NCBI GenBank assembly: GCA_021648265.1
Contig: JAKITD010000026.1
Span: forward strand, 1 to 35,509
Direction: 5' to 3'
Length of the DNA stretch: 35,509 bases
Source of the DNA: Flavobacteriaceae bacterium
GTDB lineage: Bacteria; Bacteroidota; Bacteroidia; Flavobacteriales; Flavobacteriaceae
In this document: positions 25,672-35,509 of the stretch, piece after piece
How the letters are laid out: the number at the start of each line of letters is the position of its first letter
Position numbering within the stretch: position 1 is the first letter of the stretch
The notes under the pieces: model-generated
Seen by the model: the letters and a program-made list of their open reading frames with translations, nothing else
Database searches by the model: none
Told to the model about the DNA's origin: nothing
Made by a program: the position numbers and the translations under genes

Positions 25672-25920
25672 ATGGAAACAGTAAATTACACAGACTTTCG
25701 TTCAAATCTAAAGCATTGGTTCGATAAGGTCGTCAATGATGTAAGCGATATTATTATCAAGCGTAAAAGCGGTAAAGATCTCGTATTAATATCATTAGAT
25801 GAATACAACTCATTAAAGGAAACTACATACTTACTAACAGGAAAAAATAGAGATATTTTATTAAACTCTATTAAAGAACTTGAAGCAGGTAAAGGTGTTC
25901 AAAAAGACTTAATCGAATAG
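25672..25920 (+). CDS. yefM: YefM/Phd-family antitoxin
   Basis: An 82-residue antitoxin that binds DNA with its N-terminal Phd/YefM fold (METVNYTDFRSNLKHWFDKVVNDVSDIIIKRKSGKDLVLISLDEYNSLKET) and neutralises YoeB with its flexible acidic C-terminus (LLNSIKELEAGKGVQKDLIE). Its stop is immediately followed by the toxin ATG, the standard coupled arrangement. Expected to autorepress through the palindrome at 25632-25657. Confidence 0.93.
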   Translation: METVNYTDFRSNLKHWFDKVVNDVSDIIIKRKSGKDLVLISLDEYNSLKETTYLLTGKNRDILLNSIKELEAGKGVQKDLIE

Positions 25921-26181
25921 ATGAAATTAACTTGGTCTACATCTTCTTGGAAAGATTATTTGTATTGGCAAAAAGCAGATAAGAAAATAGTAAAACGAAT
26001 TAATGAACTTATTAAAAGTTGTATGCGAACACCTTTTGAAGGCATAGGAAAACCCGAAACTTTAAAAGGTGATTTACGAGGTTATTGGTCAAGACGAATA
26101 ACATCAGAACATCGATTAGTTTATAAATACGAAAAGGAAGAAGTATTGATAGCAGCTTGTCGTTATCATTATGGAAAATAA
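25921..26181 (+). CDS. yoeB: YoeB/Txe-family mRNA interferase toxin
   Basis: An 86-residue ribosome-dependent endoribonuclease that cleaves mRNA in the A site. It aligns with E. coli YoeB along its length (MKLTWSTSSWKDYLYWQKADKKIVKRINELI, RTPFEGIGKPE, GYWSRRITSEHRLVYK, AACRYHYGK). The catalytic Glu46, Arg65, His83 and Tyr84 are all at the same numbers, so the toxin should be active. Directly downstream of yefM with no gap. The spacer after it (26182-26414) holds the palindrome at 26278-26299. Confidence 0.95.
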   Translation: MKLTWSTSSWKDYLYWQKADKKIVKRINELIKSCMRTPFEGIGKPETLKGDLRGYWSRRITSEHRLVYKYEKEEVLIAACRYHYGK

Positions 26182-26414: not shown

Positions 26415-29400
26415 ATGAGATTTCATTTTACTTCACTCGCTGTTGCTTTATGCATTCTTTCAATACCAATATTAAATGCCCAAAATCATATTGGAGATTA
26501 TGCTGTAAAGCCTCCTGATGTTAATGCATTTGAAACTATCAATTTTGTTGAGGCAAATGAATATAGTGGTAAAATAGCAATATCAGTACCCATTTTTAGC
26601 TTTTCTATTGATGGGGTTACAATTCCAATATCTATAGATTATAATTCCCGTGGAATTTTAGTTAATGAGAGTTCTTCAAGAGTAGGGATGGGATGGAGTT
26701 TACAAGCAGGGGGTATGATATCTAAATCAGTTAAAGGGTTTGATGATTTTGAACTGTCAAGTGATATCGGGGAAAGTGGAGGCTCAACAAGTGATGCAAC
26801 TCTATTTACGTCGGCCATGGGTAGTAGTGTTTTAGATGTATCAGGTAATATAACTGCTGTTTATACTAGAATGGGGTCTTTGATGTATTGTGATCCTTCG
26901 ATTTGTACATATGAGGTGAATGCATTAGGTCGAGAGAGAGAACCAGATATTTATAATGTTAGAGTTTCTGGATTAAATACTAGTTTCACTCACAAACGAG
27001 TTGGACCTGTAATTACACCAGTATAAATTTCACCAAAAGGAACTATTATATCTTCAAACATTAGTAATTTAGGGCAGGACTATGCAGGTATTTATGGTTA
27101 TACAATTTATAAACATCTCTATAGATCAGGTGAATCAGATTTTGAAAATTCTGCGGATGTACAAAGTATAAACATGATTTCTAATACTGGGATTCGATAC
27201 GAGTTTAAAGATGTAGAACATGTTCTTAATAAAAAAAATTACCCCAAATGCAGATTGGGGTAGTTATTCTCCAGTAATTTCTAGATATCACAGTAATGTC
27301 TCTTATCCTATTTCTAAAATTTCCTCTCAAAGGACTAGTCAAGAGGTAAGCTTTCATTATGAAAATGTGGAATTAGTTGAATTTGAAAATTATGTTGAAA
27401 GAATTGTGAAACGTGGAAAAATAAATACTTATTCTAAAATAGAACACAGTAATAGTTTATGGCTTAAAAAGATTATTAAAATAAATTTTGATGAAGGAAC
27501 TATTTTGTTCCATTATGACCATGATCGACTTGACATTCCAAGAGAAACAGCACTTACTGAAATCGAAATAAAAACCATAACGGGTGAAACTATCAAAAGA
27601 GTCTTGTTTGATTATAGTTATTATACAACACCTGGTTCAACCTCATTTCTAGGAAAAAGATTAAAATTAGATAGAGTGTATTTTGAAAACAAAGAAAGAG
27701 AAAATTTACCTGGCTATAACTTTACCTATAATTCCACCCCACTTCCTGAAAGGTATGCTGCCAGTACTGATTTTTCTGGATATAATAATGGTGCCAATTT
27801 TATTCAAGACCCAAGTGATTTTCCAACACAGTATTTTTATCTTGACCCAAATAAATCCACTTTACCTTTTCAAATTAATGGTGATGCTAACTTCTATAAA
27901 ATACAAGGAACCTATTCTCTTGAAGCAAATGAAACTTATGCTAAGGGTCTGTTACAAAATAATCTTTACATTTTGCCTTGTTCTTTTGCACACTAACAGT
28001 GTTAAAAATACTCACTTTAGCTAAGGCTATACCTGCGTTTTTTGCCTCGTTATTGCACAAAATAACGTCGCCAATTCTGTAAACTTTATTTTGTAACAGA
28101 CCCTAAGGCAGGAATACTTAACCAAATTGAATATCCAACTGGAGGTAAAAGTGTATTTAATTATGAGCTTAACAGCTTTAAGTACCTAGGGCAAGAAGTC
28201 CAAGGAGGAGGGTTAAGGATAAAAAGAAATACACTTTATAATACAGATCAAACAATACTTATGGACATTTCCTATAAATACAAAAAGACAGATGGTAGCA
28301 CTTCAGGTTCAATACTAACTTTACCTAAACATTCAACTGCGGAATTATACGATGGTGACCATGTTACTTATTTTGTGATTTCTAATTTTGTTGATTACAG
28401 TAATTTATCAATATCAAATGTACCGTCTAAAATATTATTTAAGATATCTAATTCTAGTTTGAACAGATTAAACTATACTAAAGGTAATTTAGTTGGTTAT
28501 TCACGAGTTAAAAAAGAAGAGTTTGGAAATGGGCATGAAATAAAAGAGTATTCTTCCCCTTCGAGTATTTCAGACACCTATGGTGTAGCAACGATTCATG
28601 CTTCTGGATCCTGGGAAAATGCAGTATCTAATTGGATTCAATTTCAAATAGATTATGGTTTTTTTCCATCAATATCTGAAAGTAATGAAGTCTTAAGAGG
28701 AAATCTGCTTAATCATTATATTTTTAATAATGAAGATAAGCTTTTAAAACATACCAATTATATCTTTGATAGAAAAAAAATCGATTCCATTAGAATATCT
28801 GAAAATAGAAATTATTCTATTAATTGTCTTATTGGGTTAAGTGGAAATATTTATCGCAACATAGAAAGGAACGAATTAGTAGCTATTAATAAGTATGATT
28901 ATCTTCAAGGAAATATATTAGAAAATAAGGAACAGTATACTTATAACCCATTAAATGGGTTAATTACAGAGAAGTCATTTCTGACTTCTAACCAACGTAC
29001 AGCAAAATTGACATTTACTTACCCTAAAGAGAATAGTACAGAAAATTTTATCCAGAATTTATTTACCCAGAACAGAATTAGCACGCCAATAAAAACAATA
29101 AATTATATTGATAACACTAAAATTAAAGAGACCAAAATTAATTATAATGAATTTAATGGAAAAATTGAACCAAGCTTGGTTGAAGTTTTCTATGGTGAAA
29201 GTATAGAAGCAGTTCCAGTGATTACATTTGAAGCCTATGACTCTAAAGCAAATCCCCTTCAGTATAAAACAACTAACAATATTACTACAGCTTTATTATG
29301 GGGAAATAATAAAACAAAACTGGTTTCAAAAGTAATTGGAGCCACTTATAACGAACTTATTGCTACTAATATTGATCTTGGAATTGTGAACAATCCTAAT

Positions 29401-30234
29401 AGTGAAAATGAATTAAATATTGAACTGAATAAAATACAAAATTCATTTGAAAACAATCCTCTAGTACATGTTGAAACTTATATTCACAAACCCCATGTTG
29501 GTGTAGCACACATTACTGATACTAGAAATCAGACGAGTAGTTTTCAATATGATAATTTTAATCGTTTTTCATTATCTAAAGATAATAATGGGAACATTAT
29601 TACTAAAAGTGATTATCATTTAAAAAAATTGCAAACTTACCCTATTTCATTATCTGGCTTTCTTGACTTTAAGTACATTGGAAATAATCAATACAAGGTT
29701 ACTGCAAATGCCACAGGTGGTTCTGGAAATTATTCATATCAATGGGGTGCAAATTGTTACTCTAATTTTGAAACAAGTACTTCTAGTAACATTTATATTT
29801 TACCATCGCATCAGCAGCCTCTTCCAAATATAAACAATTTCCCATGTTATGACAATCAAAATAGAAGTGTCCCTGTTACTTGTAAGATTATTGATAATAT
29901 TGAAAATATTGAAATTATTAGAACAGTAGTTATGGATAGGATTATCGAAACCCCTAGCCCTATTTTTCGTGTTTATTTAAACAAAACAGGACAAAAACAG
30001 GTAACTGTGACTACTTATGATGGATCAGAAAATTATAGTCATCAATGGAAAGAAAATAATGGTTCATATTCACCCTTATCTTCTAATAATACATACTCAA
30101 TTCAGACAATATTAGAGTGTGAAGATGAGGGGGGTGTACCTGTAGTTATTACATGTAGAACGGTTGATAATATAACAGGAGAAGTTCTTGTTGGTGTTAT
30201 TATTATTTATGAAACGGCTGGTTGTCAAGGTTAA
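26415..30234 (+). pseudogene. Large secreted RHS/YD-repeat-like protein gene, broken in three places
   Basis: It starts with a signal peptide (MRFHFTSLAVALCILSIPILNAQ) and reads NHIGDYAVKPPDVNAFETINF...GKIAISVPIFSF...PISIDYNSRGILVNESSSRVGMGWSLQAGGMISKSV, the N-terminal module of flavobacterial SpvB/RHS-like surface proteins. Three lesions follow: an in-frame TAA at 27024 (the same frame then runs on for about 70 codons), a +1 shift in an A8 run at 27231-27238, and a 159-bp MITE at 27945-28103 that brings stops but keeps frame. Across the insertion the ancestral reading is restored as ETYAKAGILNQIEYPTGGKSVFNYELN. The last open part runs to 30234 and ends in two PKD/SprB-like units (ANATGGSGNYSYQWG; TTYDGSENYSHQW). 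The ancestral length is about 1,220 residues. No T9SS domain is seen at the end. Confidence 0.88.
27945..28103. mobile_element. 159-bp MITE with 26-bp terminal inverted repeats
   Basis: The left end GGGTCTGTTACAAAATAA-TC-TTTACA (27945-27970) is matched by the inverted right end (28078-28103) with two mismatches. It is flanked by a TAA target duplication (27942-27944, 28104-28106). The host gene reads through perfectly when element and one TAA are removed. It encodes no protein. The first 47 bases strongly resemble the mobile-element end at 35386. GGG-starting ends and a 3-bp TNA duplication would fit an IS5-type family, but this is tentative. Confidence 0.85.
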
Positions 30235-35385: not shown

Positions 35386-35509
35386 GGGCTTGTTACAAAA
35401 TAAGCTGTACATTTTGTCTTGTTCTTTTGCCTTGCCAACACGCCAGCTGGCTCATCGCTAGAAATGTCCACTGGACATTTTTTTAACGCTCTGCCCTGTT
35501 AAAAAGCCT
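35386..35509. mobile_element. Terminus of an IS-like element related to the MITE (cut by window edge)
   Basis: GGGCTTGTTACAAAATAAGC opens a stretch that matches the MITE left end over about 47 bases (GTTACAAAATAA, then TACATTTTG, CTTGTTCTTTTGCC). Beyond that it diverges and shows an inner palindrome AAATGTCC-A-CTGG-ACATTT-like at about 35462-35480 and a CCAGCTGG word at 35443-35450. No transposase frame starts before the window edge. Preceded by TTA, a possible TNA target site. Confidence 0.65.

What the first reader, a model, noticed from the sequence alone, without database searches (positions are those of the whole stretch)
27945..28103. MITE that split a secreted RHS-like gene, with readable ancestral junction
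The element has 26-bp terminal inverted repeats with two mismatches, a TAA duplication and no coding capacity. Excising it with one TAA restores an uninterrupted reading through ETYAKAGILNQIEYPTGG, giving its exact boundaries. Element plus duplication is 162 bp, a multiple of three, so frame is kept and only internal stops interrupt the protein. This looks like an undescribed non-autonomous flavobacterial element.
Basis: seen in the sequence. Interest (0 to 1): 0.7.

Follow-up and report, generated by a model that had tools for sequence, protein, structure and literature searches.

The report
Palindromic jumping element with shared core
A 159-base, gene-free, self-complementary jumping element sits in a broken bacterial gene; it belongs to a large, apparently undescribed family in Bacteroidota whose central hairpin stays alike while its ends differ from lineage to lineage.

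Summary
Window 27945-28103 is a 159-bp non-coding element with 26-bp inverted ends (two mismatches) between two TAA copies. Host-gene pieces on either side align to relatives with no room for 54 extra codons. The element is palindromic along its whole length. The gene is also broken upstream, so the element is not its only lesion. In seven end families 63 of 70 bounded copies have exact 3-bp direct repeats, 61 of them TAA or TTA. A covariance model finds 16 copies in this genome and 144-150 (150 is the cap) in four others. Stem pairs covary. Best reading: a superfamily of non-autonomous foldback MITEs, moved in trans by DDE transposases, with a conserved hairpin core. Not shown: the helper transposase, the core's function, how ends became exchanged. 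The paper searches made gave no description. New variant of a known kind.

The parts
27942..27944 (+). left copy of the TAA target-site duplication
   Evidence: direct reading
27945..28103 (+). complete 159-bp palindromic MITE, no coding capacity
   Evidence: model R1 match at 27959-28089, 103.7 bits, the only one in the window up to E 10
27945..27970 (+). left terminal inverted repeat
28078..28103 (-). right terminal inverted repeat, 24 of 26 matching the left
27984..27997 (+). left arm of outer covarying stem (A1 columns 26-39)
28049..28062 (+). right arm of outer covarying stem (A1 columns 93-106)
28001..28049 (+). core shared with other end families; includes the inner hairpin with loop TAAG at 28022-28025
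28104..28106 (+). right copy of the TAA target-site duplication
26415..27026 (+). N-terminal piece of the host gene, in a separate frame (start looks like a signal peptide, judged by eye)
   Evidence: aligns within residues 38-204 of relatives L357, L358, L360; no match to L359's longest frame
27220..27944 (+). middle piece of the host gene, left of the insertion
28105..30234 (+). C-terminal piece of the host gene, right of the insertion
35386..35509 (+). second, related element (GGGCTTGTTACAAAATAA end, TTA before it), cut by the contig end
   Evidence: model R1 does not report this partial copy

Best explanation
The segment is a non-autonomous foldback MITE that inserted at a TAA in a gene, now decayed, for a secreted-type protein, and duplicated the TAA. 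It is one member of a Bacteroidota-wide superfamily of about 160-bp imperfect palindromes. Shown: boundaries, TAA/TTA duplications, copy number, palindromy, a covarying hairpin core, a preferred length, and different ends on like cores. Inferred: a DDE transposase encoded elsewhere binds the ends and moves the element with a 3-bp staggered cut at TWA. The long palindrome and preferred end-to-end length may help pair the two ends or let a strand fold into the substrate. The core is kept by selection on its folded form (single-stranded DNA or RNA hairpin, or a site for a protein), while the ends change to suit whichever transposase is available.
For: Three-bp direct repeats at 63 of 70 bounded copies in seven end families, 61 of the 63 being TAA or TTA; TAA is not palindromic, so it can be told from the inverted repeat. 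Six near-identical GGGTCT copies read in genome G451 (L192, L196, L199, L200, L203, L204) lie at different sites, with TAA or TTA. Host-gene relatives align on both sides with no space for the insert: L214, L209, L218 with E 4e-5 or better on both sides; L212, L213, L216 with short right-hand matches of E 0.005 to 0.1. Stem pairs: 79% standard against 40-47% in slid controls, covariation score 0.352 against at most 0.094. Several of the 24 copies that do not fit the search pattern keep the stem with changed bases. Thirty-five of 295 pairs with cores at least 93% alike have ends at random level; L061 and L066 have identical cores. A transposase element with a TTA duplication lies in the own genome at G000:C81.
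Against: No autonomous element with GGGTCT-type ends was found in 120 family genomes (one per genus, so no same-genus genome but the own) nor in the fetched PF01609 loci, which cover 64 of 70 matches in 12 of 14 genomes. The candidate in the own genome has different ends (GTACATGACAAAAA), alike only in layout. The number of further pair types is not above shuffles (56 against 54.8, 207 of 500 as high), and the structure was chosen on the same alignment, which favours it over slid versions. Covariation could come from DNA-level palindrome correction. G-T against A-C counts favour no single RNA strand (outer stem 5 against 58, 44 of the 58 at two mostly unpaired columns; inner stem 42 against 11). 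The 35 pairs are not independent: a few elements (L061, L066, L290) recur in them. Gene context differs little from background. The Arenibacter family has no clear direct repeat, the GGGAGT family 1 of 5, and the TA beside AGTAGG ends cannot be told from a longer inverted repeat.
Confidence: 0.85

Rival explanations
1. Same MITE, but the covarying arms are not selected for a fold: replication slippage or template switching repeatedly turns imperfect palindromes into better ones, so one arm copies the other.
For: Arms match along the whole element, not only in a compact fold. Small perfect palindromes are nested in several copies, so palindrome turnover seems active. G-T and A-C counts show no one strand favoured. 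Further pair types do not exceed shuffles.
Against: Internal mismatches recur (C-T at columns 56/78 in 27 of 42; A-G at 53/81 in 15 and C-C at 54/80 in 18 of 42). Core sequence is kept although arm copying would not require it; but the search pattern enforced much of this, and in the 24 pattern-free rows it is only partly kept.
Confidence: 0.4
2. One transposase family moves all of these elements; the ends look unrelated only because ends and transposase have drifted together in each lineage.
For: Seven end families share 3-bp TWA-type repeats, and 55 of their 70 bounded copies are 158-161 bp. Several ends share a G-rich start and an A-rich stretch (GGGTCTGTTACAAAAT, GTATCTGTTAAAAAAT, GGAACGATGCAAAAAT). 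Most pairs with like cores (260 of 295) do have ends above random level.
Against: AGTAGG ends are flanked by TA (10 of 11) and Arenibacter ends by CTAG on both sides in 7 of 20 loci, neither a TWA triplet. Identical cores with random-level ends are hard to get by drift alone.
Confidence: 0.45
3. A host regulatory or terminator hairpin spread for its function, not a transposable element: the inner hairpin has A and T tracts on both sides, as a two-way intrinsic terminator would.
For: Inner hairpin mean free energy about -8.7 kcal/mol on either strand, next to a T tract on both strands.
Against: Target-site duplications; insertion inside a gene in the window; flanking genes convergent in 14 of 59 against 52 of 302 background gaps, tandem 31 of 59 against 183 of 302 (no significance test): no clear preference for gene ends.
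Confidence: 0.08
4. The segment is coding sequence of a variable region or a chance palindrome.
For: Length with one TAA is a multiple of three.
Against: Four in-frame stops in the unmodified reading and relatives without it; fold z-scores -5.5 and -7.7; copies elsewhere.
Confidence: 0.01

Closest known systems
Bacterial MITEs in general, e.g. MITECca01 of Cardinium (PMC9769881; passages seen)
   Same: short, non-coding, inverted ends, many copies, presumed mobilised in trans; also in Bacteroidota
   Different: MITECca01 is about 240 bp, reported from one strain only, and keeps sequence of its parent IS982-family element; here no parent is found, and a core is shared by families with different ends
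ERIC (enterobacterial repetitive intergenic consensus; recalled, no call)
   Same: imperfect palindrome of about 127 bp, mostly intergenic, target duplication
   Different: ERIC is enterobacterial, has one consensus and a TA target; here TAA or TTA, another phylum, differing ends
Correia elements and similar Neisseria repeats (recalled, no call)
   Same: 100-155 bp, inverted ends of about 26 bp
   Different: TA target, Neisseria, no shared folded core with changing ends known to me
REP/REPIN palindromes (recalled; PMC3733652 seen only as search listing and start of abstract)
   Same: palindromic, high copy
   Different: 20-40 bp palindromes with GTAG or CGTC tags; here 159 bp with TAA duplication

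Membership tests
MITE | short, under about 300 bp | tested here: met
   159 bp; 55 of 70 bounded copies 158-161 bp, in a search limited to 50-260 bp
MITE | terminal inverted repeats | tested here: met
   24 of 26 matching
MITE | target-site duplication | tested here: met
   TAA on both sides; 63 of 70 in seven end families
MITE | no coding capacity | tested here: met
   no ORF of 80 aa or more is confined to it; two listed ORFs run into it from the host gene
MITE | multiple dispersed copies | tested here: met
   16 model matches in own genome; one further full and three partial or diverged copies seen by sequence
MITE | ends match an autonomous parent element | tested here: inconclusive
   none found; a TTA-duplicating transposase element in own genome has only loosely similar ends
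ERIC | TA target duplication (recalled) | tested here: not met
   TAA here; TAA or TTA in 61 of 63 repeats
REP/REPIN | 20-40 bp palindromic units | tested here: not met
   159 bp with TAA duplication
Rfam families | match to a curated covariance model | tested here: not met
   none over the element up to E 5; none at gathering score in ten loci with copies
IS5/IS4-type DDE mobilisation | helper transposase acts on these ends | not testable with these tools
   needs an experiment

The most novel reading that the evidence does not exclude
The core is an independent functional module, a conserved asymmetric hairpin, that has been carried by several different transposon end types across the phylum: one passenger, many vehicles. 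End exchange would let the module outlive the loss of any one helper transposase, and the preferred length near 159 bp would be a structural requirement of the folded or looped DNA.
Probability: 0.35. Interest if true: 0.75.

Novelty: new variant of a known kind. Interest (0 to 1): 0.56.

Why it matters
If right, a very abundant repeat in some Bacteroidota genomes has gone unnamed. It appears to break assemblies (this contig ends in a copy), can split genes, and offers natural end-swapped pairs for asking how MITEs lose and regain helper transposases and whether folded DNA structure is selected in small transposable elements.

Tried and rejected
Search for the parent element: local scan for paired ends 600-2600 bp apart (its output was cut, so not every pair was seen); GGGYYT ends in 120 family genomes (11 of 120 matched, the own one and 10 with one or two stray sites, against 3 control sites); PF01609 in 14 genomes (70 matches in 12 genomes by my count), of which 64 lie in fetched loci, scanned by a generic script that printed the two best pairs per locus: no parent. 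A lead only: IS5-like locus L259 begins GACTTGTTC, as does the Lewinella element L155. Reading CTAG as a target duplication of the Arenibacter family was dropped: CTAG is at both ends in 7 of the 20 loci fetched. Terminator reading set low on gene context (a crude ORF caller; a split gene would count there as tandem). Single-strand RNA reading not decided. An attC-like site was considered by eye only. Phage, plasmid and viral collections: no match. Right-hand host-gene piece: no relative in genome contigs; best PDB match E 0.085. (395 genomes drawn over the phylum, exact pattern): 2 of 395, one of them the own; 8 of 59 including own; the G043 match looks by eye like an ordinary terminator hairpin. 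One search printed many chance pairs for the short TACCAAATAC and TACCAATTAAAC patterns; those two sets and the Arenibacter set (1 of 5 with exact CTAG there) were left out of the 63 of 70, as were GGGAGT (1 of 5) and AGTAGG (10 of 11, 2-bp). Among the 70, a few of odd length (such as 73, 235, 238, 245 bp) may pair ends of neighbouring copies. Outputs were cut.

Full report
What is there. Its reverse strand aligns to it over its whole length at 71%, so the inverted ends are only the best-kept part of a full-length palindrome. Folding is far better than in shuffles. Rfam has nothing over it: the one weak match up to E 5 lies outside the element, and ten loci with copies gave none at gathering score.

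The host gene. The frame right of the insertion continues the frame left of it, with stops only in the element (unmodified DNA). Relatives with open frames of 944-1258 aa occur in six of 59 genomes, own included (3 of the 13 foreign matches carry one stop). Six relatives align to both pieces, and the distance between the two alignments is the same as or shorter than that in the pieces themselves, so 54 extra codons have no place. L214, L209 and L218 are the strong cases; L212, L213 and L216 rest on short matches of E 0.005 to 0.1 at the right side. ORF 26415-27026 is the N-terminal piece, in another frame (matches in 3 of 4 relatives tried). So the gene has at least two breaks, in unknown order. 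Pfam and NCBIfam name no family above cut-off for the pieces; there is a sub-threshold SprB repeat match.

Copies in the own genome. A second full copy at C25:9493-9651 is 72% identical with TAA on both sides; a diverged one lies at C8; two partial ones lie at contig ends, one of them at the right end of this window. Model R1 counts 16; of their places only the window copy was listed.

A superfamily. In same-genus genomes the middle of the element matched, inside elements with other ends. In an even draw over the phylum only 2 of 395 genomes match the exact pattern, one of them the own, so the family is patchy. Where present it can be dense: of 20 genomes chosen because they hold a copy, model matches at E 0.001 or better range from 5 to 150, with 150 candidates scored at most. 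A control of 28 loci, 92 kb, gave one match at E 0.24. Phage, plasmid and viral collections gave none.

Ends, duplications and length. Bounded copies with exact 3-bp repeats: GGGTCT/GGGCTT 16 of 16, GTATCT 6 of 7, GGGATT 10 of 11, TACCAAAAAC 13 of 15, TACCATTTTAAC 5 of 7, TACCAGTTAAAC 5 of 6, GGAACG 8 of 8; together 63 of 70, 61 of them TAA or TTA, one AAA, one TAG. GGGAGT has 1 of 5. AGTAGG ends have TA at 10 of 11, which a longer inverted repeat would also give. Arenibacter sp. P308M17 has 20 left ends; CTAG stands at both ends in 7 of 20 loci. Lengths of 158-161 bp: 55 of the 70, or 67 of 86 with the two further sets; the GTATCT family is the exception (2 of 7). Longer ones often carry small nested palindromes, and a 56-bp one (L186) lacks the core.

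Like core, other ends. Among 120 copies (5309 pairs of equal core length) 295 pairs have cores at least 93% identical; in 260 the ends are above, in 35 within, the 95% limit of shuffled ends. L061 and L066 have identical 49-bp cores with such ends. The 35 pairs are not independent, since a few elements recur, and the copies were found by a core pattern, which raises core identity.

Structure. On 42 representatives the two-stem structure has 79% standard pairs against 40-47% when slid by one to three columns, covariation score 0.352 against at most 0.094, and 21 of 30 pairs with changes on both sides against 17.7 in shuffles; the number of further pair types does not exceed shuffles. The structure was drawn on this alignment, which favours it. 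The six never-varying pairs come largely from the search pattern. In the 24 of 76 model-found copies that do not fit the pattern, several inner stems survive with changed letters (GC to CC/GG in L346-L348, A and T tracts swapped in L172:19-150, a new loop stem in L160:5706-5835), while GTT, TTTT, GCCT and AAAAT-type motifs stay common (that alignment was fitted to the model). G-T against A-C counts favour no strand, so selection on a fold and DNA-level palindrome correction both remain open.

Mechanism. Target duplications and dispersed copies fit DDE transposition in trans. The helper is not identified. The own genome has an element with two overlapping transposase frames, a TTA duplication and ends GTACATGACAAAAA, and a Draconibacterium genome that also carries the MITEs has one with the same ends and TTA; the second frame of the former scores 147.3 bits against NCBIfam's cut-off of 152 for an IS4-family model. 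It is a candidate only. Gene context shows no clear preference (of 62 elements 59 classified, 1 in an ORF, 2 at locus ends).

Literature. Searches returned 5, 2, 0, 1, 11 and 0 papers; I saw their listings and abstract starts (10 of the 11) and none names this family. One search showed passages of PMC9769881 (Cardinium MITE), a different element. A partial library makes this weak evidence of novelty.

Noticed in passing
window 35386-35509: The contig ends inside another family member (GGGCTTGTTACAAAATAA end after TTA), and contig C79 of the own genome starts inside one (L004): these repeats appear to break the assembly.
   Followed up: partly
L101, L140, L141, L145, L177, L194, L195, L197, L205: Small palindromes of about 15-22 bp (e.g. 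CCTGCCTGCCGGCAGGCAGG, TCCCGAATTCTCGGGAT, TCCGCCTAAGGCGGA) are nested in MITE copies of Saprospiraceae, Flavobacteriaceae and Bacteroidales; a 20-bp one is absent in the sister copy L084:696-826. No duplication is evident by eye. They look like a second, smaller class of palindromic insert.
   Followed up: no
L186 (G451:C94); also G450:C12:624854-624909 and C22:335325-335380: A 56-bp palindrome of ends without core between TTA copies (L186, read). Two G450 pairs of ends have the same 56-bp spacing (from positions; sequence fetched but not read).
   Followed up: partly
G450:C12:320960-321409 (L324): Two elements abutting at a shared CTAG, judged from the end positions.
   Followed up: no
window 25672-26181: Phd/YefM antitoxin and YoeB toxin pair just upstream of the broken gene.
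   Followed up: no
G000:C81 about 41837-43036 (L181:918-2117): Transposable element with TTA duplication and two overlapping transposase frames; possible helper.
   Followed up: partly
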